A stretch of DNA of 64,000 bases, from contig NC_088928.1 in assembly GCF_038396675.1 (NCBI RefSeq), positions 12,143,501-12,207,500 of the forward strand, given 5' to 3'. The number at the start of each line of letters is the position of its first letter. Within the stretch, counting starts at the first letter, position 1. Positions 11,155-50,510 of the stretch are shown here, piece after piece. Under the pieces are notes generated by a model that saw only the letters and a list, made by a program, of their open reading frames with translations, made no database searches and was not told where the DNA came from. The DNA comes from Hydra vulgaris (lineage: Eukaryota > Cnidaria > Hydrozoa > Anthoathecata > Hydridae). A program made the translations under genes and the position numbers.

Positions 11155-14100
11155 CTAATTCATAAATATGCTATCAACTGCAGAATCAATAGTACCACGA
11201 CCAACAGTACATTCTAAAACAACAGATTTCAGTTTTACTCCTACACGAATACGTTTGAGTTCAGTTTCTGTATAAAATTTTGTTTGAAGCATAAACTTTA
11301 ACTGCTTGTAATGTTTAAATTTAATAACACACGGCACGTTTGCTCGGTGACGTCTTTCTGTTGAATTGACCCCGACGGTTGACCATGAAATTTGATATTT
11401 AGACTTGTCTTCGTTATCGCGTTTATTTATGGGCTTAAATGAGCATTCTTTATTTGCAATTTTAATAAAACTAAACAAATGCGAAAAACTATTAATCAAC
11501 AAGAAGTAATAAAAAAGTTAACTATAAATTGTTAAAGTTTCAAAATTACATAAAACAAATAAAAATTGATTATTAAAAAAAATCTAATAAAGCGGCATTT
11601 TAAACTATAATATTTTTTTACAGAGCGTATGTTAACATGGTCAGTTACAATCAGGTTTAATGTTTATAGCAATTTCAAAAAAAATCGTTTGCGGATATGA
11701 ATATTTTGCAGAATATAGACATTTAGTAAAGCAATTGGAATAAAATTTATAAATTTCCATTTTTGTTTAAACGAATTATAATTACTTATTAATTAGATGT
11801 GTCATTCACATCAAATAATGATGTGAAAAACACCCTTAATAATAAGTTCAACATCAGTTTATAAATTTTTTTAAACTGTCGTATATGGTAAAATAAAAAA
11901 ATAACAACCTGAAATTACCATCTACTTAAAGGTTTTACCTTTCACTGAGGAAATTGGCTTCGATTTTAGTTCAAAGTTGAAAGCTCTATTTCACAGAAAA
12001 ATACATTAAAATTTGAAAAGGTTTGTTTTAAGTCAATAAGCAAGTCAAAGCTGAACAAATGTAATTGTGTCATCAGTCATTGCCCCAAAGAAAGGATTAC
12101 TAATTCAAGCAACCAATGGCAAACAATTTTTAGTTACTTGAGGTAAAAGATGTCTCTTTTTCGTTAAAAAATCCCAAGTTTTAATAAGTATTTAATATTA
12201 ATTTATAAAAATTGAAATTTTAAATCATTCTGATTGTAACTAAAGTTACTTTTTATTGTGAATAGACCGTCAAAAGTACGAATTATGATGACCACAGTTA
12301 TCTAAACCCGAGCCATTGTCAATTTTTAGCTTAATAACAGATTTTTTAATACTAATAGAAGCATTTTGGGGTCTGTAAACTGATTGAGTTGAATTTATAC
12401 AAAATAAAAAAATTTCTTGGTAAGGAAACTCTATTTAGAGAGTTTCTTTACTAGGTGAAAAATGACAGTGCACCGTCATCTAATTAAAAAAAGTCCAACT
12501 TTCTAAAGGGAGTTGCAAGTTGTTAGCCATTTTTTATAGCAAGTTTTGTTGACAAGAAGCAAGAGACTGACAAGGCTGAACATTCAGGTAGAGTCAAATT
12601 ACGGTGGACAATTTTTAGAGAATGAGTGCTTAAATTGCTAAAGAATCTTGACATATTCAAAAGAATGAGTAAAAAATTTAGCTTATTTTAAGTTTTTATT
12701 TTAAGTAGGCTTTGTAATGGTTTCCTGGCACTTCAGAGGTGTTTTTAGTTCAGGCACTAGATAAACATAAAATAAAAGGTTTTTAGAAAAATTCTGAATT
12801 GCCTAAAAGTTTTAACGATAAGATATAAATCTTGAATTGCGCAGGATTTTTCACTCATTTATTACACTCATTCATTCTTTGAAATAATGTTTCAACATTC
12901 AGATAGAGCCGTATTACGCCGGTTAATTTTCAGTATTACGCCGGACAATTTTCAGGGAATGAGTAATTTAACCTGTCAAGATTCTTTAACAGGTTTAAGC
13001 ACTCTTTTCCTGAAAATTGACCACCGTAATACGGCTTTACAAATACTCAGCCTTGCATGTCAGTCTCTAGTTATTAAATTAGGTAAATTATAAATTCTTT
13101 AGTTATATCATCAAATAAACTTTCAGATATTTACTAGTAAATGTCAACAACATGATGGAAACTCAGAGAAAACGAAGAAGTAGTCGAGTCACCAGTAATT
13201 TGATTCTATATGTAATGAATATGAAAAACAAAAAGGTTTCAGGAAAGAAAAGCTTTAAGAAGCTTAAAGTAGACTTCTGTCTAAATAAAAAAGTTTACCT
13301 TAGTTTCACGCTGGGTTCAATTTCCATTCTTATATTATATTCAGTAGCTGTTGCTAATTTTATTGTGTGTTTCTCTGTGAAACGATTTCCATCATGTTTA
13401 AAATACACCTCCCGGTTACCAAAAGCACAAATTAATTGAAACGATATGTTTAATTTAAGTTCGTTGATAACGGAAGCATTGCTTGAACCGCTGCTAACAC
13501 TTACCAAACTTTTTCGCTCTAATAAAAAAGAATTTTAAACACTATAGTAGATTGTAAAAGTATAAAATTTAAGATTAAAAGTATAAAAAATAAGTTCCAA
13601 GTATAAAAATAAAAAAATATTAAAAGTATAAAAAAATATATAAAAAGATTAGAATTTTAAAGTTTAAGAATTTACCATGTTTTAAAAATTAATAATTAAA
13701 AAGTTGATAATTAACAAACAGGTAAAATTATAAACTATCAATTTACGGCTTATAATTAGTTACTTAATTATTTAAGCTACAAAATTTATGACGTAAACAA
13801 TTACGATAACTACCTACCTCATACGTAACGGAACAACTTTTTGCGTAAACATATTTTTCTCATATAAAATATAAACTTTCAAAAAATAAGACATTTTAAC
13901 GCTTATTTTAGCAGGTAAAACTTATCGGCTCAGCCAATTGTAAATTACTCATCAAAACTGTTACTTCTCAGAGTACATAGGTAACTAAAAAAAAAAAAAA
14001 AAAAAGGCTTGGGTTCTAAATGTTGCTTTAAATATACACAAAAGAAAAAAAATGAAAAATGACACCATTTTAAGACAAAATGATATAAATATCTATGAAA

Positions 14101-25389: not shown

Positions 25390-28300
25390 TAGGGTTGAGC
25401 TTTTACCGAAAATTTACCGGTAAATCGGTAAAATTGTTTTACCGATTTACCGGTAAAATGATGTCGGTAAATTTCGGCAAATATTGTTTTTTTAATAACG
25501 TTGAAGGATGCTTGAAAATGTTTTAGAATGCTTAAAATGGCTCAACCAATAAATTAAAAATTTAATTAATAATTTAATTATCATTTTCCTGTCAACAAAG
25601 CTGTTGTTTGTTATGCTTGAAAAGTGATTTTGTTGGTATAGTTTTGTCTAAACACTTTAAGAAAAACGTTTTTACTTTCTTGTGACTTATTTATCAATCA
25701 ATGTATTTTGGAAAATGATATTACATCCACGGTCATTTACAAATAGTTATAAAACTAATATTAAGTAAATACCTATAAGTTGAGATAAAAAAATATTTTT
25801 TAACACAAATAATAATAAAAACGATGAACAATGAATTAATAATAATGATAACACTATAATCATAAAAAATAATATATTGAGTATAATATTTATAAATTTA
25901 CACTAAATAAAACCAATTAACTAAAATCAACAGAAAGAATTAAATAGTTTTAAATACTTAACATATATAAAAAGTAAAATAAAGAATAAGTACATCCGAG
26001 GAGATTTTTTAGATACAAAAAATTATAATAAACAACAACAACAAAAAAAAAAAAAAAAATAAAGAAAAACTAGACTGAATATAAAAAATAAAAATAATAA
26101 TAATACTAACAACTATAATCAATACTACTAGAATACAACCGTTACAATAATAATCCAAAAAACTTAAAATAAATACGTCACACTCTAATATAAAATAATT
26201 AAAATCTCCAACTAACAGATAGAAATAGATTAGGTGGGTAAAAATGTATAGGAAAAGTCAACAAACGAGAAAATCAGGAGCATTAAAACACAATACAAAC
26301 ACACACACACACACACACACAAAACAAAACATATATCATAATATTAAAAAACATAAAAATAGGGACAAAATCACAGAAAAAATAAAATTACACAACATTT
26401 AAACATAGAAATAAATTTTAAAAAGTATATATTTTTGTTAAACCTTCGACTTTTCGAATTTATAAAAACGTTCCATATTTTTCTTAACTTGCCTTTAACT
26501 TCTTTTTTTTTTCATACATTTTAATTTAAAGATATCTTTTTGTTGTATTTGATTGACATTTTTTTTCTTTTTTTTTATTTTGGCTTAATTTTGTTAATGC
26601 TTTCATTTATTCTTAATGCTTTCATTTATTCTTAATGCTTTCATTTATTCTTAATATATATATTTTTCTTTTATACTTTTAATAGTTTTTGTTTTTTTCT
26701 AAATGATTCTTTTTTCTTTCTTTTTCACCGTTACAAAAAAGCGACCGCCATTTGCAATGTCATTGCAAAGTCTTCATCATTCATATTTATTGTGGTCTTT
26801 ATCACTAAATTTGATTTGCGTTTTGGCAGAAACACTACACCTCAAACAAAGGGAAAACAGTTACTTGCAAAATTTGTGGAAATACAAGTCAATACACAAG
26901 TTCCACAATTGGAATGTGGTATCACTTAGACAAGAAACATGGAATCAAAAAGGTAACACAGGAAAAAGTGACACCAAAAGCTGCATCACAATCAAAAAGG
27001 CCTAAGATTTCAACTTTTTTTCAAAAGCAATCAATAGAAAAAGTGATTTCAAGACTTACAGCATTGGATGGATTTAGTTTCAATGCCATTGTTAACAGCT
27101 CTTTCATTCGATCTGCAATGTCTAAAAAAGGTTATGATTTCCCAAAAAATCACAAACAAGCAATCCAGTCAGTTAAAAAGTTTGCAACTGGCGTAAGGAA
27201 TGACTTTAAAAACACTTTCAATTCTTTAGTGACAATGGGAAAACGCTTTTCAATTACACTGGATGAGTACACTTCTTTGAAAAATCGAAGGTACATAAAT
27301 ATTAATATTCATCAAAAAAACAATCACTGGAATCTTGGCTTGACTCGAATTTCCGGATCTCTGCCGGCTGAAAAAGCTGCAGCTGTTGTCACTGAAAAAG
27401 TGGCAGAATTTGGGTTGAAACTAGGCAACAGCATTGTCTGCTCAGTTACTGATCGAGCTTCCATGATGGTTAAGTTCGGAAAACTGGTTCCAACCGAGCA
27501 TCAAACTTGTTATACCCACGGAATGCACTTGGCCGTTCAAGAAGTGCTATACGAGAAGCCTTCTCAACAAATCCAACAAAACATTTGAAGAAACAAGCGA
27601 CGACGACGAAGTCAGCAGCGACGAATCTGAATCTGACACCGAAGTCAGTTTTCTTGGTGCCGCCATGGATGAAAACATTCCCATTCCGAAAGTGAAAGTT
27701 CACTTGCAGTCTGTCATCACAAAAGTCAGAAAAATTGTCAAGTTATTTCAAAAATCGCCCGTCAAAAATGACGTCCTTCAAGAAGAAATTAAGAAAGAGC
27801 ACGGAAAAGAGGTTTCACTTATCCTTGACAGCAGAACAAGATGAATCAGTCTGCTGTCAATGATTCAACAGTTCCTCAAAGTCAAACATTTAATCAGAAA
27901 AGTATTGAAGGACATTTTTCCACATTTGATTTGCAGTGATGGTGAAGAAGACATTTTATCCGACATTGTTGTTGCTCTTGAACCAGTCAAATTAACAGCA
28001 GAAGCACTTTGCCGACAAAATGCAACTCTTCTTACTGCTGAAGGAATTTTCAAGTTTCTTGTGAACAGACTGAAACAACAAGATTCACCTCTTTACATTG
28101 CGATGAAGAGTGCAATTTTGAGACGTTTTGAAGAGAGAAGGCAGAGCAATCTTGTAAGCTTGTACAGATATCTTTCCAATCCAGAATGCTTGTCCGACAT
28201 TGAAGAGCATAAAGTTTTCAATATGCCTCCGAAGTCTGTACTTCAAAAGACCACCAAAAACTTGCTGTCTAGGCTTTTTCCAACAAATCCATATGACCTG

Positions 28301-28741
28301 GAGTTTATTCAAGAAGTGCATGGCTCAGAAACTCTTGACGAAAATCCACTTTTACTTGATGAGGAACTCAAGGAAGCAATTCAGCATTCGGCCAAAAAAC
28401 AGCGACACATTTCAAACAACGAATTCAAGGCCATTTCAAAAGAAATGTTGGTCTATGAAGCGACCGGAAAGAGAACTGCAAACCTTGAACTTTTGTTCAA
28501 TGCACTAGAAACCATCCCACCCAACAAGTATCGAATCTGAGCGAGCCTTTTCTGCCGCTGGATTATTTGTGACAAAAATTCGATCCAGAATGAGTGACAA
28601 TTTTTTATCCAAAAATAAATCTCAAACTAACATTAATGTCTTTTATTTACTTATTACTGCATTTTATGGTCTTCTGTTTATGCCATTTTATTTTTTACCG
28701 TTTTACCGGTAAATTTAAAAGTCGGTAAAAGCTCAACCCTA
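25390..28741 (+). mobile_element. hAT transposon with a perfect 8-bp target duplication
   Basis: The ends are TAGGGTTGAGCTTTTACC and its inverse, flanked by the identical 8-mer GTCAACGT (25382-25389 and 28742-28749), diagnostic of hAT insertion. Just inside the left end is a run of ACCGGTAAA / TTTACCGGT palindromic motifs; a shorter set lies at the right end. The 3352-bp element carries one transposase gene on the plus strand. A 1.3-kb AT-rich 5' region includes an (AC)n tract at 26298-26320 and a GCTTTCATTTATTCTTAAT tandem repeat at 26595-26655. Confidence 0.92.
26830..28640 (+). pseudogene. hAT transposase, BED zinc finger type, broken
   Basis: A BED finger opens the frame (CKICGNTSQYTSSTIGMWYH, then DKKH; about 26866-26940). 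The catalytic part follows, with FSITLDEYTSLKNRRY and a CSVTDRASMMV segment, and the C-terminal hAT dimerisation motif ESERAFSAAG lies at ~28533-28565. Defects: a frameshift near 27560-27590, an in-frame TGA at 27842 where Trp fits the family, and a one-base shift near 28520. No ATG lies in frame before the BED finger, so the N terminus is lost or lay in an upstream exon. Intact parts run 26914-27588 and 27860-28540. Few lesions and clean flanks suggest a moderately recent insertion. Confidence 0.85.
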
Positions 28742-29447: not shown

Positions 29448-29770
29448 TTAAATATGAATTTTTGTTGCTTCTTTATTCTCAAATTCCGCAATTACAATAT
29501 CTAATTCTAATGTTTGTACTTTTTCGTTCTCTATTGCCGAAATTCCACAATGTTTGAGACGCTCCTGAGACATGCTATTTCTTAAATATGTTTTGATTAA
29601 CTTTAATTTGCTAAAGGATCTTTCTGCTTTAGCAACTGTCACAGGTATTGTCATCAATAGTAACACTGATAAGTTTACACCTGAAAAACTGGACTCCATA
29701 AAACTGTATTTGATGAGCAGTATGTTGGCTAAACCTTTTATTGTAGTTGTTTCTCTGATATCATGTGATG
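29448..29770 (-). pseudogene. hAT transposase C-terminal fragment
   Basis: The minus frame contains LMTIPVTVAKAERSFSKLKL, then KTYLRNSMSQERL, the conserved hAT C-terminal dimerisation region (ZMYM1-like subgroup as I recall it). It ends with a stop at 29448. Upstream the frame runs into the left inverted repeat of the virus-like element, so the element seems to have inserted here. I find no matching hAT sequence beyond its right end. Confidence 0.75.
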
Positions 29771-29968
29771 ATAGGTGAATGTCACATTTATCGTTCCCGT
29801 CCATCCGTCTGCCTTTTTTTAAAATAATAACGTCGCATAATCCGATAAAAAAAGATCTTAAAAATATTTTGATCTTAAAAAAAAAAATTTTATTTTAAAA
29901 TTTTAAAATGTTTAACGAAGCGTAACCAAAGATATATAAAGGAAAAAAAATTTTTATTAGTCATTTAA

Positions 29969-30124
29969 ATGGAATCGAAAAACAAACCGTTATAACAATT
30001 TGAGACTACTACAAATGTGGCATTGGTAAAACCGCATAATTCATAACCGCCTAAACCAAAACCAGAATATATCCTAGATCCCAATATGAATTATTATCGT
30101 TATTTCGGCAGAATTCGTTACTAA
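29969..30124 (+). pseudogene. Small virus-like gene, two in-frame stops
   Basis: Starts at ATG 29969 and keeps one frame for 52 codons to TAA at 30122, interrupted by two TAA codons. The middle is Lys/Pro-rich (PPKPKPEYILDPNM) and the end is Tyr/Arg-rich (NYYRYFGRIRY). No family recognised. It opens the rightward gene set next to the left terminal repeat. Confidence 0.4.
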
Positions 30125-30135
30125 GGTGAAAAATA

Positions 30136-30297
30136 TTGAATGGTATAGTTATAAAAAAAGTTGGTACGATTATAGCGCTTACACCAATCATTATTATCGT
30201 TGTACTTGGAGGTTATTTATTTGGAGCATTATTAGCTGGGTTTATTATACTTGGAACAATTTTGGGTTTATATTGCAATATATCTGCGAAAAAATAA
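30136..30297 (+). CDS. Small hydrophobic protein, probable membrane protein
   Basis: The frame from a TTG at 30136 encodes 53 residues that are almost wholly hydrophobic: VGTIIALTPIIIIVVLGGYL, then FGALLAGFIILGTILGLY, ending NISAKK. Two membrane segments with a short turn are expected. There is no ATG in frame, so the start is uncertain or lost. Overlapping frames give less natural proteins. Function unknown; small membrane proteins occur in many large DNA viruses and Polintons. Confidence 0.45.
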   Translation: MNGIVIKKVGTIIALTPIIIIVVLGGYLFGALLAGFIILGTILGLYCNISAKK

Positions 30298-30320
30298 TAA
30301 AATTTTGAATATAGAAATAT

Positions 30321-30546
30321 ATGAAACTCGTGTATATAAAAGTTTTGAGAACTTTATATCTTGATATTAAAGTGTATAGCTATACCTTTTATAGGACTTG
30401 GATATAGTTTTTATGGTTTTGTGGTAGAAGTAAAATTATTTAAAATAATATGTGCAGGAATTTTTATATATTTTTATTTTACGTATTTAGTAATTATTGA
30501 AACGATTCATTGTTATAAAAAAGATCGAGAAGAAAAAACATTGTAA
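30321..30546 (+). pseudogene. Small membrane protein, frameshifted start
   Basis: An ATG at 30321 opens MKLVYIKVLRTLYL, but the frame shifts near 30361 to ILKCIAIPFIGLGYSFYG. It then continues through a hydrophobic helix to a charged tail (KKDREEKTL) and a stop at 30544. Two hydrophobic segments. No family recognised. Confidence 0.4.
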
Positions 30547-30583
30547 TACAAATTTTTTTATTATTTTTAATATAATAATACAA

Positions 30584-30799
30584 TTATTTACCAATTCGAT
30601 TGATTTTGTACGATATTCCACCTGAAAAAGCGCCACCCAAAACAGCTTTTTCTATGGTAGGTAAAAGACTTGGTTCAAGACTTGGTAAAAATCGGAATGC
30701 GATTGCTCCCAGTACTGGTAAAAATTCTCCACGTATTCGTCTTGTTCTTCTATAACGTCTTTGTTTTTTATGTCTTTTTCTAATAGTTTTTTTGTACAT
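30584..30799 (-). CDS. PX-like core protein, 71 residues
   Basis: Intact frame from ATG 30799. Residues 3-23 are almost all Arg/Lys (KKTIRKRHKKQRRYRRTRR), followed by IRGEFLPVLGAIAF, a longer hydrophobic stretch and a Gly-rich end. A basic arm and then an RG-x-x-LP hydrophobic segment is the pattern of the adenovirus core protein X (mu) precursor and of PX in adintoviruses and some Polintons, which bind and condense the viral genome. It starts 5 nt after the stop of the 50-residue gene upstream and shares its RG[KE]FLP motif. The match rests on short motifs, so homology is likely rather than shown. Confidence 0.6.
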   Translation of the reverse strand: MYKKTIRKRHKKQRRYRRTRRIRGEFLPVLGAIAFRFLPSLEPSLLPTIEKAVLGGAFSGGISYKINRIGK

Positions 30800-30804
30800 T
30801 TTAA

Positions 30805-30957
30805 TTAACGTGGTATGAGAGAAGATAATAAAGTTGGTGCTACAAGTGCTGCTAACAATGGTAGAAATTTACCGCGCATTCGTCTTCTTAAACGTTTTCT
30901 ACCTGCGCCTTTTAACGGGGGTAAATAAACTCTTCCTCTTCCTCTTTTTTTATGCAT
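30805..30957 (-). CDS. PX-like core protein, 50 residues
   Basis: Intact frame from ATG 30957 to TAA 30805. The N-terminal half is basic (HKKRGRGR and AGRKRLRRRMRGKF), and the C-terminal half is hydrophobic (LPLLAALVAPTLLSSLIPR). It has the same RG-x-FLP-x-L core as its 71-residue neighbour downstream, so the two probably arose by duplication. Expected role: DNA condensation or capsid core, as for adenovirus mu. Both are intact although larger genes in the element are broken; short genes are also smaller targets for mutation. Confidence 0.6.
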   Translation of the reverse strand: MHKKRGRGRVYLPPLKGAGRKRLRRRMRGKFLPLLAALVAPTLLSSLIPR

Positions 30958-31171
30958 TACGATGATTTTGAGTTTAGCTTATGTTTTTTTATATTTTAAA
31001 TACCTAACTCGTTTTTTTAACACATGTAAATTTACTTTTTTGTATTTGTTATTTATGTTAATTTGTTACGTTTACGTTGCGAAATAATTAGGACTTTAGC
31101 GAAAAGTCTGAATTGAGGCAAACTATTGTATAAGTGTACAGTAAAAAGTGTTTTTAGGAAAATATCTAAAT

Positions 31172-31408
31172 CACCTGTACCTCGGGTTCGTTTTTTAAAT
31201 CATTTTCTTGTTTTTCTTTTACACTCGGTACAACAAAATTTTTTCACGCATTACGTTGTTTTTGTAGATAATCGAGCGTGTAACCTCCTATATCTGATTT
31301 AATTAGTCGTTTCGCTAAATTTTTAACTCGAGTTATAAATTTACCTCTACCTCTATGACCACGATGTCTACGACGATGTCCGCTTCTTCTAATACGTCTT
31401 CGAGTCAT
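31172..31408 (-). CDS. Basic core-like protein, 54 residues, possibly truncated by a TGA
   Basis: From ATG 31408 the frame gives an Arg/His/Gly-rich arm (TRRRIRRSGHRRRHRGHRGR), then GKFITRVKNLAKR and GGYTLDYLQKQRNA, with TGA at 31244-31246. The RG-KF at residues 21-24 is shared with the two PX-like proteins. After the TGA the same frame stays open for about 24 more codons with charged residues, to about 31172, so the ancestral product may have been longer. A DNA-binding virion core protein is the likely role. Confidence 0.5.
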
Positions 31409-31433
31409 AAAAATGATTAAATAAAAAAAAAGC

Positions 31434-31637
31434 TTTTTTTTTTTTTTTTAGTTATAAGTTTGCCCCCGCCATATGTATATTTTACCAAAACTCTCGTATT
31501 GGTAAAATATACACATGGCGGGGGCAAGAAGAAGACAAAACATTCTTATTGCCAAGCTCCCAGTAATCCGTAAATAATATAGCTATCAAATCCTGTCATT
31601 AAAAATGTTATCAAATATATAAAGAAAAAAAAGAAAG

Positions 31638-31668
<31 letters not shown>

Positions 31669-33418
31669 CAAACAAACAAACAAAAAAAGACAAAAAAATA
31701 AAGATAATAAATTTTAAAACTTATTTTCAAATATAATTGAACACAAAGCAAAAATAAAAAAGAAACAAACAAACAAAAAAGATATCGAAACTATATTAAA
31801 ATGTTTTTAATTATTGCGATTAAGAATTCTTAATTAGGAAATATAATGAAAAGAATTTAAACTTCTACAGAAAGACCTTTAGTTTTTCATAAAAAGAAAA
31901 TAAAAAATAAGTTTTTTAGTGAACTAAGTTTTTAAACCTTTGCAAATAAAATGAAAATACACGATACAATATTTTAAAGGCCAACAATTAAATATAGCTC
32001 TAGAAGAAGTCCTTCATGTTTTGATTAATTAAAATTATTTCTTTTAGTTTTGATTTAAAAATATTTATGTTTGCAAGCGTTTTGATGTCATTTCAAATTA
32101 CTTTAGTCCATAGTTGTGGGCCTCTAGCTGTGATAGAAAACTTCAAGTGGCTTCAAAGTGATTTTTAGCTTGAACATAATTATTGTTTGCATGTCTAATG
32201 AGGTATTTGTGCTGTATTTTTTTAAATAGCGTTTTAAAAATATTTGGTATCGTATCGTTATTGATTTTATACATAAAAATTAAATGATGATATATATTTA
32301 TTTGGTAAACATTTCAGATTTTTAGATTAATAAATAGTGGTTGTGAATGAGAGAGACGGTCTGCGTTGGATATTATTCTTATGGCATGTTTTTGTTTGTT
32401 AAATAGTTTGTTTAGTTTTTTTTTATTGGTGCTGCACCAAGCAATGTTAGCATAATTGAGATAACAATGAATAAAAGAGAGGTAGATATATTTTAAGCAA
32501 GTTTGATTTAGATAAGGTTTTACCTTATAAAGTATGCCAATATTTTTGGAAATTTTATTGTCGATTAATTTTAAGTGGTTTATCCATGTGATATTTTCGT
32601 CAAGAAGAACACCTAGAAACTTCATTGAGTGTTCTCTTTTTATAAATTGATTCCCGATGCTAATATTTGAGAGCTTTAGAGGAATTTCGTCTCTTTGATA
32701 AAAGCGATGAAAAAAAATATACTTAGTTTTGGTTAAGTTTAATGACAATTTGTTTGTATTAAACCATTCAGTTACTTTTAACAGTTCTTCGTTGACTGTT
32801 TTAAATTGAGTTTTTATGTTACTATGGGAATAAAATAAATTGGTATCGTCAGCAAACAAAACAGAGTCTAAAATATTCGAAGCTCTGCTTAAGTCGTTAA
32901 TATAAATTAAAAATAAAAGCGGTCCTAAAATGGATCCTTGAGAAACTCCACAAGTGATTGTCCTATTGTCAGTTTTACCGCCATCATAAGAAACATACTG
33001 CTTTCTATTAGACAAGTAGCTTTTAAACCAAACTATATTTGCATTCTTAACTCCGTAATTTACTAGTTTTTTTACTAAGATATGGTGGTCAACTGTGTCG
33101 AAAGCTTTGCTAAGGTCTATAAAAATACCTAATGTATACTCTTTTTTTATCAAAAGCTCAAAAAATATCATGAACAAGTTTAAGAATAGCATGATCAGTT
33201 GAATGACATTTTTTGAACCCAAATTGTTTGTCGTATAAAATATTATTTGTTTCTAGAAAAGAGAATAGTCTATTATACATTATTCGTTCCAGTATTTTAG
33301 AAAAGCAAGGAAGAATGGAAATAGGTCTATCATTAGAGACATTAGAAAGATCACCCGATTTGAAAACTCGTATAGTTTGATTTTTTAGGAGTTTTTTTAG
33401 AAATAAATAGTCGTAAGC
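31434..33418 (-). mobile_element. 5'-truncated CR1/Jockey-like LINE inserted in the virus-like element
   Basis: Reverse transcriptase occupies 33350-32314, with RPISILPCFSKILERIM, FIDLSKAFDTVDHHIL, GVSQGSILGPLLFLIYINDL and the catalytic FADD box; the main intact frame is 33222-32314. The 3' end carries a stem at 31463-31529 (28 of 29 bp paired, TTGCCCCCGCC at its foot) and a poly(T) on the plus strand at 31434-31450, i.e. a poly(A) tail. Endonuclease and ORF1 are missing. AAGCTT occurs next to both edges and may be part of a target duplication. The LINE separates the core-protein genes from the large structural gene, so it arrived after the element. Confidence 0.8.
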
Positions 33419-33480
33419 TTATAAAAAATACAGTTCGAACACGGTTAAATTAACCAAAATAAAAATGTCCTATAGTCAAT

Positions 33481-35203
33481 TATGATGATTTAAATTTGTT
33501 AGGAGCATATGCAAAATTTTCGTCTAGTCCTGTTCCAGTTTGTACCAATTGAGCTGGATATTGTAGATACATAGTTAACAAACCTTTATACCGTTCTGTA
33601 AATTGAAAAGTAATTTGAAACGAATTGTTTCCTGCAATAATTGTGGGAGGTTTGTCGTTGACATAATTGCAATCGCTGGTCGTGTCTATGACTAACGTTC
33701 AGTTATATTATCCGTACTAAAATAACTTGACGGACTTTTAATAAAACTATCGTCATCGCTTGTGTATTAATCGGCAAAATTATTAATATTTGATGTAGAA
33801 GGAGTGTTTCCTTTACTCCTCGAAACATAATTTCGCCAAGGAAGTTGTTGATCTTCGACTTTAGTAAGATCAATTTCAACAGTATCGCCTGGAGAATTAA
33901 CAAATGTTCTTCTATAATTATATAAAGAAATTTTTTTTAAAAACTTAAAAGCAATTTTGGCAGCTGTTAAACAATTTTTGTTTAAATGATCGTTTTCTTT
34001 TTTTGATTCTACTGAAAATATAATACAATGAGGTACAATATCTGCTGTTTTTATATTTCCCAAATTAACGGTAACTTAACCTTCTACGTTTGTAATGACA
34101 AGTCCATGATGAGCAAAACGAAGTAAAGTATAAGTTTCGTCTTTTTTACTGTTAATGTATAAAGAATTTTCCAACGGTAAACTCGGTTTTATTCTATACG
34201 TGTTTACGTAAATAGTAGGATTTTTAATAACAAAACCAACGTTGGCAAGAGCTGTAGCGTCGGCGTTAGTATAAACCAATACCGATTCTAAAAGTAGATT
34301 CGTATCATTTTCATTGTAAAATTCAATTTTAAGTTGTTTTCCTTTTCCATATTAGGTTTTGATTCGAAAAAAATTCTTATAATAGACTTAACGAAACTCT
34401 AAACTTGCAACCTTTATCTCCAGTCAAAAGTGCGTTGTATCTAGTTTTCAATTCTGTTTGATAACTGGGAATCGCTCCGTTTATGGCTCTAATTAAATCG
34501 TTAGGGTCGGCTGATTGAATAAGAGCTTTTGTTTCATTAAAAGTTACTCACTATCAGTATCAGTATCATCAACTTCAACAATTTCAACAAATCCTAAATT
34601 TGGATTAATTATTTCTTGGCTAAATCTTTTTAAACAATTTTTTTTTAATGAGTAGAGCTTTAAAACGATCGAAAGCACGATTTGTTGTCGCGTTGTTTGC
34701 GCAATAGTATTATTTTGTTGATAATTAGGATAAACTTTCATATTTTTTATTATATTTTGAACGATGTTTGCTGCTAAACATATTTTTCCTAAAAAAGCTG
34801 TATCGTCGGCTAAAGTGGAAAATTTTGTTTGAGTGTTCAAGTTTTTATAAAGAAAGAAATCAAAATCTAATACATAGCCTTGCAGTCCATTCGTTTAACA
34901 GCATAGTAAAAGTAATTAAATTTGAGAAATCCGAAGTTAGGTTGCACGAAAATCTTTGATAACCAGTAGCTATAACTTCTTGAGGTTGAGCTGTTTGAAA
35001 ACCTGGATATTTTTCGTTTAAAATAGCATTATATTCTGCGCTAATATTACCGCTTGTTGCTTCTTGCAACAAACGATTTTCGTCTTCTGCTTTGCTAAAA
35101 CATTTTCAAGAGTAACATGTTCGTCTGTGTTTGGCGTATAACGGTTTCCGTCGACCGCTCTCATATATTTAGCTGTTGAAGCCATTTTTTAAATTAAATA
35201 AGA
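33481..35203 (-). pseudogene. Large virus-like gene, probable capsid protein, multiply broken
   Basis: From ATG 35203 (MASTAKYMRAVDGNRYTP) a protein of roughly 570 residues can be followed on the minus strand through successive frames to a stop at 33481. I count at least four frameshifts (near 35095, 34845, 34550 and 34380), an in-frame stop near 34077, another near 33768 and a shift near 33690. The open pieces are at 35072-34860, 34840-34544, 34279-34076 and 34063-33767. Their composition (many Asn, Thr, Gln and beta-prone stretches; an acidic DDTDTDSE patch) suits a virion structural protein, and it is the largest gene of the element. No catalytic motif is visible. It may be one gene or two adjacent genes; capsid identity is inference. 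Confidence 0.45.
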
Positions 35204-35264
35204 AAAAATTAAAACCTTTTTTTTAAAACGTTTTTTTTTTTTTCTATTTATTCATCATCTGAGT

Positions 35265-35621
35265 CGGAAGTGTTTTTTTTTTATGGTAATTTTTTGTTTT
35301 TAACCTCTTTTAAAGCTCGAGTGTAACCAAGTTCAATTAAACTTTTTTTATTTAATTTTTTTTCTTTTTTTCACCGCTATTCTCCATAAGTCTACGAGAT
35401 AAAATTGCTCTTTGTTGGATAATGCCATTTCTGCATAAACCGTGAATAACGTCTACTGCGTTAACTTCTTGAAAACATTGAGAGCATACGTGAGACGGAA
35501 CAGTGATTTTATTTTTTGGAGGTTTTTTTTCGATAGTTTCATCTTCTTCTGAACTTTCTTCGCTTTCTTCGTCTGGATATTTTCGTTTCTTACGTTTTGG
35601 TTTTTCATCATGTACTTTTTT
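35265..35621 (-). pseudogene. Small Cys-containing, charged virus-like gene
   Basis: The minus frame 35615-35352 encodes a Lys/Arg patch (KPKRKKRKYPDEE, resembling a nuclear localisation signal), an acidic run (ESEESSEEDE) and a Cys segment, CSQCF ... HGLC, that could hold zinc. A further short frame (LIELGYTRALKEV, ending TSDSDDE) follows across an A-run and may be its displaced C terminus. The start is probably lost to a poly(A) slip near 35620. No family recognised. Confidence 0.4.
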
Positions 35622-35670
35622 TTAAATCATTTTCTTTTTTGAGGTTTTTCTTCTTTGGTTTATTCTTTTT

Positions 35671-35904
35671 TTATTTTTTTAAATATTCGCATTTTTCTTC
35701 CAATTCTGATTTCATGTTTAAAATGTCAGATTTGGTAGAATATTGCGAAAGTTGATTTTGTAGATGATTTACATGATTTTTAATTTGATTAAACTGATCT
35801 TTATGATTTAATTTTGAATCTAAATTGATTAAATTTTTATCGTATCTTCCTTTAGCGCAAAAAAGACTCGTTTTTTTTAATAATAGAAAAAAAAACAAAT
35901 TCAT
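35671..35904 (-). CDS. Small coiled-coil protein of the virus-like element
   Basis: 77 residues. A short hydrophobic start (MNLFFFLLLKK) is followed by a helical, charged region (IKNHVNHLQNQLSQYSTKSD, then MKSELEEKCEYLKK) with heptad-like Leu/Ile spacing. Signal-anchored coiled coils of this kind can be fibre or scaffold proteins, but nothing specific is recognised. Confidence 0.4.
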   Translation of the reverse strand: MNLFFFLLLKKTSLFCAKGRYDKNLINLDSKLNHKDQFNQIKNHVNHLQNQLSQYSTKSDILNMKSELEEKCEYLKK

Positions 35905-36109
35905 TTCTCTTTATATTTTTTATCATAAACAAATATAATAAATCAAATTATTTTATAGTAATCAAATAGGTTTATTTTCTATTTTTATATAACGTTATTT
36001 TAAAAAGTACTTAATTGTAAAACGGTACCATTTGTATTTTCAATGTAGGGTTAAAAAAAACTGTATTACTTAGATTGCTGAAGGTAAGAGGTTCTTTTTT
36101 AGAGTTCAA

Positions 36110-36640
36110 AAAAGACTATTTAGTACATTTCCAATCTTCTACATCGTTAATATCGAAAGTTGTTAATTGTCCTTGAATTTCAGGCTTGCGATTATTAGTG
36201 AAATCGATATTGATTGACATTTGCGTAGGATTGTTAAAATTTGCTAAATCAAAAGCAACAATGCTGGGTTCGTATCTTTTATTCATGAATATTCCGCAAT
36301 TGATGGCTTGAGTGTATCGTGTTGTTGTAGGAAAGTTAAAAATGGCGTTATTAAAATTAGTTATTTGCGTTAAAATGCATCTTAAAAAAACAATTTTTTT
36401 CTTTTGTATTTTAAAATCTTGAGTCATGGCGCTAGCCATATTGTGATCTACTTGCATAGCAAACCTTATATTTTGCAATTAAACTTAAATCGGCTCTCAT
36501 AATTTTATAAATATCGGTAGGTAAATGAGACTTGAAATGGTTTGTCAGAAAGATCAAAAATAACGATTGGCATTTGATAAGGAGAATGTGAATTATCTTT
36601 CATTACAAAGGAACTAGTTTGAAAATTTTTAAAATTTTTT
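36110..36640 (-). pseudogene. Virus-like gene next to the right terminal repeat, frameshifted
   Basis: Pieces in three frames run in order: MKDNSHSPYQMPIVIFDLSD from about 36604, FKSHLPTDIYKIMRADLSLI near 36535-36480, and the open frame 36478-36116 (HNMASAMTQDFKIQKKKIV ... FDINDVEDWKCTK). The product would be about 170 residues. No known domain; beta-rich and Asn-rich like the large gene. It is the first leftward gene, so it may lie directly behind a promoter in the right repeat. Confidence 0.4.
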
Positions 36641-36756
36641 TTTCATGATTAAAATTTTTTTTTAGATCTTTTTTTATCGGATTACGCGACGTCATTATTT
36701 TTAAAAAAGGCAGACGGACGGACGGGAATGATAAATGCAACATTCATCTATCATCA

Positions 36757-37928
36757 ATCGTTTTTAATAAAAATGATAACATTAATTAATTGGCTTGGAA
36801 TATTTTTTTAATTGCTTGGGTTATTCTGTTATTATAATTTTGCTGATTCGATTAAATCATCTTCCGACATTTTTATTAAGTTTTAAGGTTGCATAACATT
36901 AAAAAGTTTTTTACATTTCAGTTAATCTATTAGTTATAATATTTATATACATAAATTCAACTTAATTCATCAAAATGTCTTTTATATTTGAATTCTAAAA
37001 CTTAAAAGTTGGTTTTATTTGCCACTTACTGCAAATAAAAGTAGCATTTAATTTAAATAAATCGCAGTTTGATCTAAATTTCTTTTACGTTGAATTTAAG
37101 ATTACCTAACAACGTTTAGATTTAAGGACTTTTTTTTTTAAGTTTTTGAAGCATAATTAACATTCGTTATTATGTGATGCAGAGTTACTCAAATTAAAAA
37201 CAAATTCAAAGTTTAATGTTTTGTCTCTTAATTTCAGAGCTTTAGTTTGTTCTTCCCTTTTCTAATTTTTAAAGAAACTTCTGTTAAAGTATTAACTAAA
37301 AATAATTAAAATATGGTTAATATGATTAAGATTCTCGTAATTGTAAATCTCAGAAGACTCCCTGAGCTCCAACCCTTACCCCCCCCCCCCCCCACCTTGC
37401 GGGATTGTGCACCCTCTATTTGCGCCACTGATACAATATCATTAAGGCTATCCAGTTTATCTAATCATAGACTAATAAATTAGCAAATTGATGATATGGT
37501 TATGCATGTGAATATGCAGGATTATAATAAACAATATTTACAAAATAAATATCTAAAAAATAATTCTATACAAATGTATAATTATTTTTAGATATATATT
37601 TTGTAAATTTTGTATATCTCAGAAATTTTAGTATCTCAGAGTTTAAACTCTAAGATATGATAAAGTACATAACGTAGATGATATCGAATATAACAATAGA
37701 ACAGTATGAACACATAAATTTTTAGAGAAATATACCTCTGTACATTTCTCATTGAAACTATGTGTAGTTTCAATTAGAAATGTACAGATGTAAACGTATT
37801 TATAGATGTAGACGTTTTTCTATAAGTAGAAAAACATCGACATTTCTAAAGTTGTAAATAAATGTTTCTAAAAGTATTAATTACTATATTATCTCAAAAA
37901 TAATTTTTTGATAAAAAATCTTATATTG
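36757..37928. other. AT-rich spacer
   Basis: No gene. A 15-base poly(C) run at about 37380-37394 borders CCACTG / CAGTGG-like hAT-end sequence (37370-37424). A stem of 22-bp arms with no more than two mismatches lies at 37738-37787. Confidence 0.5.
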
Positions 37929-43666: not shown

Positions 43667-45423
43667 CAGTGGTGGCCAAATTATTAGACTAAATGCAATT
43701 TTTGATGCATTTGTGAAATTTATTCATATATAATGCAACATTTTTATTTCAAAACATTACAAATAATTAGAAAAGTTAAGAAGCGCAATATTTTATTGTA
43801 AAAAAGCACAAAATTGAACCGTTTAAATATAAAAACAATTAAATACAATGCAAAATTAGGACTTGATATTCAAATGCCAAGATGACTTAAAATTCGCATT
43901 AATAAGACTAAGTTAAATACAATAAAAATGCAAAAAGTAACAATTGAAAATAAAATAAATTACAATGGCAATGAAAGTTCAAATACTTGAAACATGTCAG
44001 TTAATATTTTGTATGGTTTCCCTTATTTTTAAGCAGTGCCTGGACCCTTGAAGGCATCCCAAGTTTCGGGCAAAGCTTACGGATTTTGTCATGATGCCAG
44101 GCATTGATCAAAGCTTCGGTCATTTCCATCTTGTTTTTTGGTTTCATCCCTCCTACTCTTCTTTTGACAATCTCCCACAGGTTCTCAATAGGGTCCGTGT
44201 CAGGTGAATTATCTGGCCACTGCAGAAGCCTAATGTGGTTGTCAGCTAAGTATTTCTTGACTGTCTTCGCTGTGTGACAAGGTGCTCCATCTTGCATAAA
44301 AGTGAACGGTCTCCGTCGACACCATTCGCCAAGTTGAGGCAGCAGTTGTGCCTCAAGCAACTTCTTGTATTGAACTTGATTCATGGTGCCTTCAACAATA
44401 TACAGTCGTCCAGTCCCATGAATAGAAATAACTGATCAGGCCATGACATACGTTGGGTGCTTTACTGTCTCTGCAACACAGTCAGGATAAAATTCTTCAC
44501 CGGGTCTCCTACGTACATAGACTGCTTTCTCATCCATGATGTAGGATGATTCATCACTAAAACACACCTGATCCCAATCATTTTCAGTGAAATTCTTGTG
44601 TTGCTTTCCCCTTTTTAAACGTTTCTTGATCATTGCCAGAGTAAGCTTTGGTTTTCTGCGTGACCGTCGAGCTCGAAAACCATTCACAACTTATTATCTT
44701 CTGACTGTTCCGGTACTCACATGTACATTACTTTTTTGTAATTCTTTCTGCAACATCTTGCTTGTTGCTTTACGGTTTCTTATACAGCATTTCATGAGGT
44801 ACCTGTTGTCTCGCACAGACATTGGTTTTTTTCTGCCACAATTGCCAACACGGTTGCCTCGTAATTTTTCACCAGTCTGCATCTTCTTTTTTATTCTCGA
44901 TACCAATTTCCGACTTATTTCAACATTTTTAGCAACCTCCTTTTGCGTGAGTGATGTCTCTCGTAGATAAACCTCAACTCTGGCCAATTTTGTCGGTGAC
45001 AAGTCAGCGGCTTTTCTCATCTATTAAAAGGACATAAAATGCTTTATTAATTAAACATGTTTCTTCATTTTTAATGTAGAAAATAAAAATAAATAAAAGA
45101 TTGAGCTTAATGTAATGTCAAGCAACTCTTATAAATGTACATTTTCCTTTAATTTCTGCTCATAAACATCAAACAAATAAGAAAATTCTGACCTTTAACA
45201 GATAGCAGGTGACCAAATTTTAATATTCAATTTACAGTTAAAATTTTCAATAAAATCTTGAGCAAAAAGAAAAAGAAATTGCACTTTTTATCACTTAAGC
45301 AACATTGGGCTATACATGCAGTAACTATATATACATTAATTTGTGCCAAGGTACATTCTTATTAAGGTACATTCAAAAATAATCTCGGTTTTGTAGTCTA
45401 GTCTAATAATTTGGTCACCACTG
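43667..45423 (-). mobile_element. Tc1-like transposon, TA duplication
   Basis: The ends CAGTGGTGGCCAAATTATTA and (inverted) CAGTGGTGACCAAATTATTA are flanked by TA at 43665-43666 and 45424-45425. The length is 1757 bp. One transposase gene runs on the minus strand. Confidence 0.93.
44001..45020 (-). pseudogene. Tc1 transposase (DD34E) with three premature stops
   Basis: One continuous frame of 339 sense positions from ATG 45020. The N-terminal paired-like HTH is seen (LSPTKLARVEVYLRETSLTQ, KEVAKNVEISRKLVSRI) with a second HTH after it. The catalytic core has FSDES, MQDGAPCHTAK and DPIENLWE, with 34 residues between the second Asp and the Glu. Two adjacent TAA codons (44691-44696) and a TGA at 44436-44438, where Trp fits the family, interrupt it. 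No frameshift is present, so only point changes separate it from an intact gene. It cuts and pastes its own ends; this copy is inactive. Confidence 0.93.
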
Positions 45424-45840: not shown

Positions 45841-47120
45841 GGTGTATGCATATGAAACCGCTGTTTTTTCTTTGAATTAGAACGTTTGTTTTGGAGATGT
45901 TTTATTTATATTTCTTTGAATGTAATTTCCATTATTTTCTACTACTTTTTGCCAATTTTTTGGTAACTTATGAATTCCATCCCAATAGAATTTCTCAGGT
46001 TTAGAAGCTATCCAATCATTGAGCCATTTTTTGACCTCTTCATAATTCGAGAAGTGCTGATCTGCCAAGCCATGTGACATTGATCGGAATAAATAGTAAT
46101 CTGATATAGCAAGGTCTGGTGAATACGGCGGGTGGCATAAGACTTCCCATCCGATAGTTTTCAACGCTGTTTGAACAACTTTACAAACATGAGGACGAGC
46201 ATTGTCATGTTGAAGAATTATTTTATCGTGTCTCTCAGCATATTCGGGTCGTTTTTCTTCTAATGCTTTTCTTAAACGGAATAATTGGAGTCTGTAAAGT
46301 GGCCCATCAATTGTTTCTTTAGGTTTTAGCAACTCATAGTATACCACACCAATCTGATCCCACCAAATAGACAGCAAAGCCTTATTTCCATGAATATTCC
46401 TCTTTGGTGTTGATTTTACAGGTGCGCCTGGGTCAACATAATGTGTTGTGCGGACTGGATTGTCAAAATAAATCCATTTTTCATCTCCAGTCACTATTCG
46501 ATGCAAAAAAGACTTTCTTTCAAAACGATTCAATAACATTTCGCATGTCACTAAACGCCTTTCAATATCCCGTTCTTTCAATTCATGTGGAACCCATTTT
46601 CCTTCCTTTCTTATTTTACCGAGAGCTTGTAAACGTCTTGAAATTGTTGCCTGATCAACATTCAACTCTTCTGCTAATTGTTCTTGAGATTGAGCATCGT
46701 CTTCGTCCAATAAACTTTGCAATTCTGAATCTTCAAATTTTTTTGGAGGTTTACCACGTTCCTTGTTGTCAAGATCGAAATCGCCACTTTTAAATCTTCT
46801 AAACCAATCTCTGCAAGTTGTTTCAGATAAAGCATGGTCAGAATAAGCTTCTACAAGCAAACGATGACTTTCTGCAGCAGTTTTCTTTAAAATAAAATAG
46901 TGAAGTAATACTTCCCGCAAATGCATATTTGAAGGCACAAAGTTGTTCATTTTGAAAGATGTATAAAATTATCTAGATATGAACAAAATCAAATTAAAAA
47001 CTATGATATTTAAAGCAAATTGAACGTAGTTTCACACACATAATCATCCATACATTAATTTTGTCTTAAAAAGAAAATTAACTTGTCTTATTTTAAACAG
47101 CGGTTTCATATGCATACACC
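45841..47120 (-). mobile_element. mariner transposon with 26-bp identical ends
   Basis: GGTGTATGCATATGAAACCG plus CTGTTT is identical at both ends (inverted), flanked by TA at 45839-45840 and 47121-47122. The length is 1280 bp with one intact gene: all parts expected of an autonomous mariner are present. Confidence 0.95.
45877..46950 (-). CDS. mariner transposase (DD34D), intact, 357 residues
   Basis: The frame is uninterrupted from ATG 46950. N-terminal HTH motifs are followed by the linker WVPHELKERD. The catalytic triad is Asp in TGDEKWIYFDN, Asp in ILQHDNARPH and Asp in YSPDLAISDYYLF, with 34 residues between the last two (DD34D). Length and the WVPHEL and HDNARPH blocks match the irritans/Hsmar1-like mariners as I recall them. 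It ends 36 bp inside the left terminus and begins 170 bp inside the right. Intact frame, identical ends and clean TA flanks mark this as the youngest DNA transposon of the window; it may be active. Mariners move between species, so recent horizontal arrival is possible. Confidence 0.95.
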   Translation of the reverse strand: MNNFVPSNMHLREVLLHYFILKKTAAESHRLLVEAYSDHALSETTCRDWFRRFKSGDFDLDNKERGKPPKKFEDSELQSLLDEDDAQSQEQLAEELNVDQATISRRLQALGKIRKEGKWVPHELKERDIERRLVTCEMLLNRFERKSFLHRIVTGDEKWIYFDNPVRTTHYVDPGAPVKSTPKRNIHGNKALLSIWWDQIGVVYYELLKPKETIDGPLYRLQLFRLRKALEEKRPEYAERHDKIILQHDNARPHVCKVVQTALKTIGWEVLCHPPYSPDLAISDYYLFRSMSHGLADQHFSNYEEVKKWLNDWIASKPEKFYWDGIHKLPKNWQKVVENNGNYIQRNINKTSPKQTF

Positions 47121-48165: not shown

Positions 48166-50510
48166 GTTCTCCCAAACAATTAGAGACCATTAGGAATAAG
48201 TACATCCTTAATAGGATTTCTACATTTCGAAAACTTGAGATGAAGTTATTCGCATTTAAAATTTTGTAAAAGAAAAGTTCTTTAGGCACATTTGCATTAG
48301 CATCATATAGTCATCCATATAAAGCTTTAGAAGGGCTGAAAATTGAACAAGCTCATTTCCGAGACTTTCTTCAAGGTCAGGCTTGTACTTGTTAACCAAA
48401 TTGTTCGCAGACATCATTATTTCGTTTGGTTTCAATTCATCAAGGCGATTCAGAAAGCCAAAATACTCACATACATTCTTGTAAGCATTTATTTTCTTTA
48501 AGTGAGACATAAAATTGGTCAATCACTGGGATAAAACTTGTTGTGCGAAACTGATCATTTAGGGATTGCTGAACTTCATCTCCAAATTCATAACCCAATG
48601 GATTGAGACGAACATTTCTATTCCGCTGACGACGTTGAGCTTGGGAATATTCAGTTGAACTAGATAATTTCTTTGCACGTTCTTCATATTGAGCAAAACA
48701 TTCTCGTTTTGATTCCACGAATGCTTACAGTGAAGTAAGGGCATCTACTGCAGACTACAATACCATTTCAGGACTCTGGAGTATCTTGTTTGTGGCATTG
48801 AATCGCTCCAATATCTCATTCCAAAACAATGAATATAGCGCAATTTCGATCTTGCACATTTGCTTGTGAAGCAGCATTGCGAACAATATTCTTTTCCTCC
48901 TTGTTAATTGAAATTTTTTCCAAAGCCACCTTAAACTTGTCATATCCAACAACAAGTGCCTTAACTGCATCATGTCTGCATGACCAACGAGTATCACTCA
49001 ATCCTTTAGGTGTCAGCAGTTTTTTCTTGTTTGTCTTTTCTTGAGAGCTAGACAGTGCTTCTGTTAGGACTTGGTAACATGAAGGTGATGCTGTGAAAAA
49101 GACGTGCACTTCTTGAACAAAGTCAAAGATTTTCACTGCTGCAGAACATGTATTTGCTGCTGCCTTACCAACTAAATTCAGCGAATGTGCACAATATGGG
49201 ACATAAATCCATTTTGTTCCTTTATCAAAGCTTGCATTCCACAATATTTACCACTCATGTTGGCAGCATTGTCATATGATTGACCTCGACAGTCATGTAA
49301 ACTGATTCCATTGGATTCCAGATATTTCAATAATGCCTCTGTCATTTCACGACCAGTGTGACCTGTATTAGGGATAAAAGTTAGGAATCTCTCATTCGGT
49401 ATTAACTTTTCCATATCCATGTAACGAATTATAATAGTTAACTGATCAATATGAGCCTCATCTGGTGTAGAATCGACAGTTACCGAGAAATACTTTGATT
49501 TTTTGATAGAACCGAAAATGTACTTTAAAACTTGTGAGCCCATCAAATTTATAATTTCTTCACAAATAGTGGAAGACAGATAACTGGTATGGCCTCTTCC
49601 TTTATTCGCATGCATCTTAATGTGAGCAGCAAGAAAAGTGTCAAATTCACTTGGCAGTTCTAAAATTCCTAGATAATTCCCATTGTGTGGTGATCCAACA
49701 ATTTCATTATCACCTCGAAAAGCTAACCCTCGTTCTGCAATGAACTATATAGTACTTATTACACGTTGCAGTATTTGATTCCAGTACACACATATTTCAG
49801 ATTTCTGTTTTGCTAGCTCATGGTAAATTTCTCCAGACTTTTTGCCACGCTGTGCCAAAGTTATAATTGCTTCTAGATGGCCTTTAGATGATTCATGTTC
49901 ACTGACACGCACTGAGGCATGTTTCCAATAGCAAAAACCAGAACATGAAAAATTAGTGGTGATACTTTTGGACCCAGTCAATTTGCAAATAAAGCAATTT
50001 TCCTGTGTGTGAGGAAAAGCACAACCAATTACGTTGACATGTTTCACTATTTGTTGTTTTTCGTAGGAACAAATTTGGGGTACATTTCCGAAAAAAGGTT
50101 GAGTCATCAGGTTTTTCCTGTTTCTGTGATATTGAATGTTTCCTTATGGTATCTTGATCACAATTTTGCAACAACGAGGTAGGTCCCTTCTCTGCTCAAA
50201 ATGTTATCATACCCGTTGAAGCTACTTCTGGCCACAAACCAATATCATTCCCAAATCCAAGCATAGAGTCATGTTCATGTTCAATTGTTACAGCTTTTGC
50301 CATCATAGCTACTGTTGCCTGATGTTCATCTGCTTCTGCTATTGTTTAATTGTCACCAATGTCTTGCGATAGAAACTCCTCAACTGGTGGTAGCATAGCT
50401 GAAGTTCCAGGTAGTGACTTCTCCATCTCGTTTACTAAAAAAAGGACTAACTTTTCTTGATTTGGAAAAGACTTCCTATGCTTTTTTCTCTTTTTCTTGA
50501 GCTGACTTAC
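48107..50510 (-). pseudogene. hAT transposase with TTF-type zinc finger, broken
   Basis: From about 50510 down: a charged N terminus (SQLKKKRKKHRKSF), then the TTF-type finger (CFICKLTGSKSITTNFSCSG, then FCYWKHASVRV) at 50000-49880. The DUF4371-type core follows (SKYFSVTVDSTPDEAHIDQL, IRYMDMEKLIPNERFL, LHDCRGQSYDNAANMSGKYC), then YVPYCAHSLNLVGKAAANTC, and a degraded dimerisation tail (SNCLGERSFFKLKLEKF) near 48170. Open pieces are at 50107-49745, 49615-49178, 49244-48816, 48718-48467, 48522-48256 and 48289-48107, in shifting frames. Inactive. This ZMYM-like hAT group is widespread in animals. Confidence 0.85.

What the first reader, a model, noticed from the sequence alone, without database searches (positions are those of the whole stretch)
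29766..36756. TIR-bounded virus-like element of about 5 kb with no visible polymerase or integrase
A 7.0-kb segment (about 5.0 kb without its LINE) has ~120-bp inverted ends, divergent gene sets and several virus-like small genes, but none of the replication or packaging genes expected of a Polinton or adintovirus. It could be a deletion derivative, a satellite element mobilised by a full-length relative, or an undescribed small family. This is the best candidate in the window for a new system.
Basis: partly seen in the sequence, partly recalled or inferred. Interest (0 to 1): 0.88.

Follow-up and report, generated by a model that had tools for sequence, protein, structure and literature searches.

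The report
Tiny capsid-only relative of Polintons
An animal chromosome carries the decayed remains of a roughly 5-kilobase, repeat-ended virus-like element that encodes a hexon-like shell protein and core-like peptides but has no room for a polymerase, so it probably depended on a helper virus or a partner segment.

Summary
143-bp inverted ends (86% identical) bound 29766-36756; their alignment score is 182, against at most 54 in 1952 control pairs. Without its LINE the unit is about 5.0 kb. Two low-confidence models of that family both give hexon/PRD1-type capsid or scaffold entries in 50 of 50 listed PDB rows. Two small basic proteins have adenovirus core protein X as their only Pfam match, both below threshold. 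No polymerase, integrase, ATPase or protease was recognised, and a polymerase gene would not fit. The gene sets converge from the two ends; they do not diverge. Best reading: a fossil of a small virion-forming element replicated and integrated in trans, as a satellite or the capsid segment of a multipartite virus. A deletion derivative is not excluded: the host-genome search did not complete (22 calls). New variant of a known kind; its capsid family looks undescribed (2 relatives found).

The parts
29766..29908 (+). Left terminal inverted repeat
   Evidence: 86% identical to the right end; score 182 against at most 54 in 1952 control pairs
29969..30294 (+). Candidate left-end gene with a hydrophobic C-terminal part (open piece 30130-30294); broken by in-frame stops and a frame change; no homolog found
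   Evidence: Sequence and ORF list; Pfam only sub-threshold (DPM3, E 0.037)
30349..30543 (+). Candidate second left-end gene, hydrophobic, 65 aa open
   Evidence: no Pfam family at E up to 10; PHROG membrane-protein match at E 0.082
30587..30799 (-). Basic 71-aa protein, protein-X-like
   Evidence: Only Pfam family at E up to 10 is Adeno_PX, E 0.67, below cut-off; the longer ORF gave no family at E up to 1; no PDB match
30808..30957 (-). Basic 50-aa protein, protein-X-like
   Evidence: Only Pfam family at E up to 10 is Adeno_PX, E 0.022, below cut-off; best PDB sequence row is PX of 9lr9, E 1
31247..31408 (-). Third Arg/His-rich peptide, 54 aa
   Evidence: only a chance-level Pfam row (Circo_capsid, E 4)
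31460..31527 (.). 68-bp palindrome, probably a small later insertion
   Evidence: Arms 94% complementary, 4-nt loop
31530..33425 (-). LINE fragment inserted in the element; ends estimated by eye
   Evidence: RVT_1, E 5.2e-23 and E 2.9e-06
33480..35185 (-). Major capsid protein gene, hexon/PRD1 type; full extent, broken into pieces by stops and frame changes
   Evidence: tblastn of P0002 covers residues 1-493 and 495-565; 8 pieces match P0002 in order at 36-70%; fold rows
35355..35621 (-). Small gene with charged N-terminal half and a CxxC motif
   Evidence: Open piece; Pfam only sub-threshold (NinF, E 0.12; Eapp_C, E 0.19)
35674..35910 (-). Small gene, helix-rich in appearance
   Evidence: Open piece; six sub-threshold Pfam rows, best E 0.016
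36014..36617 (-). Broken gene of about 200 codons upstream of the capsid gene; penton is a guess from size and position only
   Evidence: Open pieces 36508-36642, 36435-36599, 36119-36478, 36014-36115; no Pfam match above cut-off, PDB chance-level only
36618..36756 (-). Right terminal inverted repeat

Best explanation
The segment is the decayed chromosomal copy of a small (about 5.0 kb) virion-forming DNA element from the capsid lineage of adenoviruses and Polintons. Shown: matched inverted ends; a capsid gene of full extent from an apparently undescribed family; compact gene sets converging from the ends; no recognised replication, integration or packaging enzyme. Suggested but below threshold: protein-X-like core peptides. 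Inferred: the ends served as origins for a protein-primed polymerase and as substrates of an integrase, both supplied in trans, with packaging ATPase and protease, by a full-length relative (satellite case) or by a partner segment (multipartite case). The element brought its own shell and core proteins. After integration it decayed and received a LINE.
For: Ends. Capsid gene; fold. Core-like peptides. Absence of enzymes. Room: with the ORFs I assigned no gap exceeds 221 bp, and the largest stretch without an identified gene is about 1.4 kb (35186-36617), too short for a PolB gene. Both sets start close to a repeat: candidate ATGs at 29969 and 36603, 60 and 15 bp from the repeats. The sets stop 43 bp apart. 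Precedent: adenovirus-class virion genes in genomes without recognisable PolB and integrase (PMC11071296, section 16).
Against: Only one copy was seen; the number and length of other copies are unknown. Several assigned genes are ORFs without any homolog, and at least three are broken. The protein-X matches are below the curated cut-off. A single deletion between the converging sets would give the same map. No target-site duplication was found. The structure models have mean pLDDT 38.7 and 46.7 and only the C-terminal half is tested. P0002 is on a 2003-bp contig, so its own genome size and ends are unknown.
Confidence: 0.5

Rival explanations
1. Internal deletion derivative. A full-length Polinton- or adintovirus-like element (10-20 kb) of the same capsid family lost one block with polymerase, integrase, ATPase and protease, leaving left-end genes joined to the capsid block near 30544-30586. 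It then spread or was simply fixed as a single defective copy.
For: The two gene sets meet at one point, so one deletion would suffice. The capsid type is that of full-length viruses. Non-autonomous derivatives are usual among DNA transposons (recalled).
Against: No remnant of any lost enzyme was recognised at the join or elsewhere in the element (23 of 99 pieces scanned), nor in 78 of 84 ORFs of 72 aa or more outside it (25 of 28 families shown). ATPase and protease are missing too, which asks for a large block or several losses.
Confidence: 0.35
2. A self-sufficient miniature virus whose replication protein is one of the unidentified small genes or which recruits host enzymes, as has been suggested for other viruses without a visible replicase.
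For: The left-end genes, the two small genes at 35355-35910 and the 36014-36617 gene have no assigned function. Replicase-free and unknown-replicase options are discussed for anelloviruses and a Betta virus (PMC11071296, section 15).
Against: Most unidentified genes are under 100 codons; the two plus-strand ones are hydrophobic. Inverted ends suggest protein-primed copying, which needs a polymerase (general knowledge).
Confidence: 0.08
3. The inverted ends belong to an unrelated transposon that happens to enclose viral genes.
For: A hAT C-terminal dimerisation domain lies just outside the left end (29529-29663, E 9.1e-08). No Polinton-type 6-bp duplication was found.
Against: Candidate genes start 60 and 15 bp inside the repeats and fill the interval; the hAT piece is outside the repeat; the repeat has no third copy in the window.
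Confidence: 0.07

Closest known systems
Polintons / Mavericks (polintoviruses)
   Same: Inverted ends, chromosomal insertion, double-jelly-roll-type capsid gene in a structural block
   Different: About 5 kb instead of 15-20 kb (size from PMC4028283, passages); no recognised PolB, integrase, ATPase or protease; no 6-bp duplication found
Adintoviruses and other 'meldviruses' (PMC11071296, sections 15-16 and passages)
   Same: Animal host; adenovirus-class virion genes; some reported genomes lack recognisable PolB and integrase
   Different: Adintoviruses are defined by PolB with an OTU-like domain, an integrase and a hexon recognisable by BLASTp; here no such genes, and the capsid protein has no sequence match in Pfam or PDB
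Bidnaviruses
   Same: Linear segments of 6-6.5 kb with non-hairpin inverted ends; Polinton-derived replication (PMC4061559, passages)
   Different: Parvovirus-type single-jelly-roll capsid, encoded on the segment VD1 that also carries PolB; here a hexon-type capsid and no PolB
Virophages
   Same: Satellites with their own double-jelly-roll capsid (general knowledge)
   Different: Larger genomes with their own ATPase and often replication genes, protist hosts with giant-virus helpers (general knowledge)
Adenovirus
   Same: Fold of the capsid protein and core protein X likeness

Membership tests
Polinton/Maverick | Double-jelly-roll major capsid protein | tested here: met
   50 of 50 listed PDB rows of hexon/PRD1/NCLDV type for each of two models; low pLDDT, C-terminal half only
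Polinton/Maverick | Protein-primed PolB | tested here: not met
   No family in 23 distinct ORF pieces; largest stretch without an identified gene about 1.4 kb
Polinton/Maverick | RVE integrase | tested here: not met
   No rve family in the scanned pieces; a badly decayed one cannot be fully excluded
[quoted passage not shown]
   No such family in the scanned pieces; same caveat
Polinton/Maverick | Penton (single jelly roll) | tested here: inconclusive
   Gene at 36014-36617 fits by size and place only; no match; not folded
Polinton/Maverick | Inverted ends with 6-bp target-site duplication (recalled) | tested here: inconclusive
   Ends present; duplication not visible, best 4 of 6 over 18 offsets
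Adintovirus | Hexon recognisable by BLASTp to other adintoviruses | not tested
   No adintovirus hexon set was at hand; P0002 found only P0003 among the 7996 candidates scored
Adintovirus | PolB with OTU-like domain and integrase with chromodomain | tested here: not met
Bidnavirus | Parvovirus-type capsid protein and PolB (split genome) | tested here: not met
   No PolB; capsid rows are of hexon/PRD1 type
Satellite or segment of a larger virus | A helper or partner genome with the same ends | not tested
   The genome search unanswered in 22 tries; no capsid relative or TIR match in viral contigs

The most novel reading that the evidence does not exclude
A family of about 5-kb, repeat-ended animal viruses or satellites that carry their own double-jelly-roll capsid and core genes but no replication, integration or packaging enzymes: either satellites of Polintons/adintoviruses or the capsid segment of a multipartite double-jelly-roll DNA virus, overlooked because at least one survey dropped elements under 10 kb.
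Probability: 0.45. Interest if true: 0.87.

Novelty: new variant of a known kind. Interest (0 to 1): 0.62.

Why it matters
Double-jelly-roll DNA viruses are usually single molecules of 9-10 kb or more that bring their own replication and packaging genes (sizes recalled). A 5-kb unit with only virion genes would mean trans-complementation in an animal Polinton/adintovirus system: a satellite, or a split genome. A 2025 preprint states that no segmented or multipartite dsDNA element is known (PMC12324425, passage; the segmented DNA packaged by polydnaviruses, recalled, is a partial exception). A Polinton study removed elements shorter than 10 kb as incomplete (PMC4028283, passage), so such units could have been discarded unseen. 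The capsid family itself looks undescribed: no Pfam or PDB sequence match beyond chance for P0002, and two relatives found in a database of 5.8 billion proteins, within the limits of a word-based search.

Tried and rejected
Rejected: chance TIR. Rejected: a LINE or hAT origin of the capsid gene; both lie outside it. Rejected: a parvovirus-type capsid, because the fold rows are of hexon/PRD1 type. Not rejected: deletion derivative.

Led nowhere: homolog search with the 102-aa piece alone (2 candidates, none at E <= 1); viral contigs with three window pieces, P0002 and alignment A4 (no relative in any of the 5); the TIR pattern in viral contigs; genome contigs with A4 (none); P0002 in phage records (one chance match, E 9); PHROGs (3 of 10 pieces with rows at E 0.024-0.082, none convincing; P0002 none, P0003 two at E 0.27 and 1.1); Rfam and tRNA scans of the window (nothing). 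PDB sequence searches of capsid pieces, P0002 and A4 gave chance-level rows. The structure search of the second model in the viral library was weak and mixed: 2 rows at E <= 0.001 (a Tupanvirus orfan and a Megaviridae major capsid protein), below them several giant-virus capsid proteins among RNA-virus coat and phage tail proteins. A longer ORF around the first protein-X-like gene showed no Pfam family at E up to 1. Rows dropped before folding: pieces 34547-34894 and 34902-35105, because they misaligned. Literature: the nine answered searches listed no paper whose title or abstract start describes a 5-kb repeat-ended double-jelly-roll element; most listed papers were not opened, and the adintovirus founding paper is not held, so absence from print is not established.

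Full report
Observation. The inverted ends are real: 29766-29908 pairs with 36756-36618 at 86% identity. The local alignment scores 182, while 1952 pairs of 400-bp stretches 6850 bp apart elsewhere in the window score at most 54, median 22. A 28-base pattern from the repeat occurs twice in the window, once per end, and in 0 of 100 shuffles. Inside lie a LINE fragment (RVT_1, E 5.2e-23) of about 1.9 kb by my reading of its ends, and a 68-bp palindrome, so that about 5.0 of the 6991 bp belong to the element proper. The left end has a hAT C-terminal dimerisation domain next to it, at 29529-29663 (E 9.1e-08). No target-site duplication is convincing: over 18 offsets the best 6-bp comparison is 4 of 6.

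Host. A CNRIP1 match at 11158-11517 (E 6.4e-14), next to hAT-type, mariner and LINE sequences, points to an animal genome. No call names the species; Hydra is a guess from base composition and repeats, untested.

The main gene. One open 91-aa piece (34079-34351, minus strand), padded with X so that full-length proteins became candidates, found one protein among 37 word-sharing candidates in a database of 5.8 billion: P0002, 565 aa, 68% identical, E 4e-29. P0002 in turn found only itself and P0003 (314 aa, 50% identical over 56%) among the 7996 candidates that were scored. P0002 matches the window over residues 1-493 and 495-565, from 35185 to 33483. Eight window pieces, compared one by one, match it in order at 36-70% identity. 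The gene is therefore complete in extent, but it is open only in pieces that lie in different frames or are parted by stops. An intact relative exists in public data (source: ENA).

Core-like peptides. Two small open genes, 30587-30799 and 30808-30957 (minus strand), each have Adeno_PX as their only Pfam family at E up to 10 (E 0.67 and 0.022, both below the curated cut-off). The longer ORF around the first gave no family at E up to 1. The second has the PX chain of 9lr9 as its best PDB row (E 1, two unrelated rows at E 3); the first has none. They share a 24-residue stretch. A third Arg/His-rich peptide at 31247-31408 has no meaningful match. The likeness is suggestive, mainly because of its company with a hexon-type capsid gene.

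Layout and what is missing. The minus-strand set runs leftward from the right repeat: a broken gene of about 200 codons (36014-36617), two small genes, the capsid gene, then the basic peptides. The plus-strand set, two small hydrophobic candidates, runs rightward from the left repeat. The sets converge and end 43 bp apart, contrary to 'divergent'. I scanned 23 distinct non-LINE pieces of the element (9, 4 new, 10) out of 99 pieces of 28 aa or more; none gave a polymerase, integrase, ATPase or protease family. Of 84 other ORFs of 72 aa or more in the window (low-complexity ones left out), 78 were scanned: 28 families at E up to 0.01, of which 25 were shown, none of these a Polinton enzyme; the RVT_1, DDE, HTH and other rows belong to other transposons or are weak. 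With the ORFs I assigned, no gap exceeds 221 bp. Even if every gene without an identity is counted as free space, the largest stretch is about 1.4 kb, too short for a PolB gene; a decayed integrase or ATPase is not strictly excluded there.

How it most likely worked. By analogy with protein-primed viruses with inverted ends, the repeats would be copied by a PolB and joined to the chromosome by an integrase, both from another genome with matching ends; the element would bring shell and core proteins. This is inference. Whether the partner is a helper virus (satellite) or another segment (multipartite) cannot be told. The alternative that this copy is a one-step deletion of a 10-20 kb relative stays at about one in three: a single deletion between the convergent sets would give this map. 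I prefer a dedicated small element because no remnant was recognised, the join is tight, candidate genes start right inside both repeats, and ATPase and protease are missing as well. The test that decides it, counting copies in the host assembly, was asked for 22 times and never answered.

Comparison with what is known. Buck and colleagues (PMC11071296; outline, passages, sections 15 and 16) report genomes with adenovirus-class virion genes that lack recognisable PolB and integrase, and discuss multipartite, parasitic and replicase-free explanations for a circular fish virus. Bidnaviruses show that Polinton-like ends and segments of 6-6.5 kb can go together (PMC4061559, passages), with a different capsid. 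A Polinton study removed elements shorter than 10 kb (PMC4028283, passages). A preprint on 4.6-kb marine elements says that no segmented dsDNA element is known (PMC12324425, abstract and passages). The window element meets the capsid criterion of Polintons but fails PolB, integrase, ATPase and protease as tested, so I do not file it as a Polinton or adintovirus. It looks like a member of their capsid lineage that worked as a dependent element.

Verdict. New variant of a known kind; interest 0.62 as it stands, higher if several 5-kb copies or a partner genome are found.

Noticed in passing
window 45880-46968 (-): A 363-aa open mariner-type transposase (Transposase_1 E 6.7e-23, HTH_48 of Mos1 E 1.6e-18); an unbroken frame, so possibly a recent insertion.
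   Followed up: partly
window 26815-28537 (+): Two long open pieces, 257 and 231 aa; the first has a BED zinc finger (E 3.9e-06), the second only a weak row. They read like a BED-type hAT transposase, by eye only.
   Followed up: partly
window 29529-29663 (-): hAT C-terminal dimerisation domain directly outside the left end (E 9.1e-08); the rest of that gene was not found on the right side.
   Followed up: partly
window 31460-31527: 68-bp near-perfect palindrome inside the element, possibly a small later insertion.
   Followed up: no
window 37527-37617 and 37715-37810: Two hairpin-like inverted repeats to the right of the element, arms 91% and 78% complementary.
   Followed up: no
window 44004-44435 (-): DDE_3 transposase piece (E 2.5e-12).
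   Followed up: no
window 49181-49744 (-): DUF4371 piece (E 4e-13), a domain of hAT-like transposases.
   Followed up: no
window 11158-11517 (-): CNRIP1 match (E 6.4e-14), a host gene that marks the genome as animal.
   Followed up: partly
window 56932-57489 (+): 186-aa open piece with a sub-threshold DNase_II match (E 0.0033); identity unclear.
   Followed up: no
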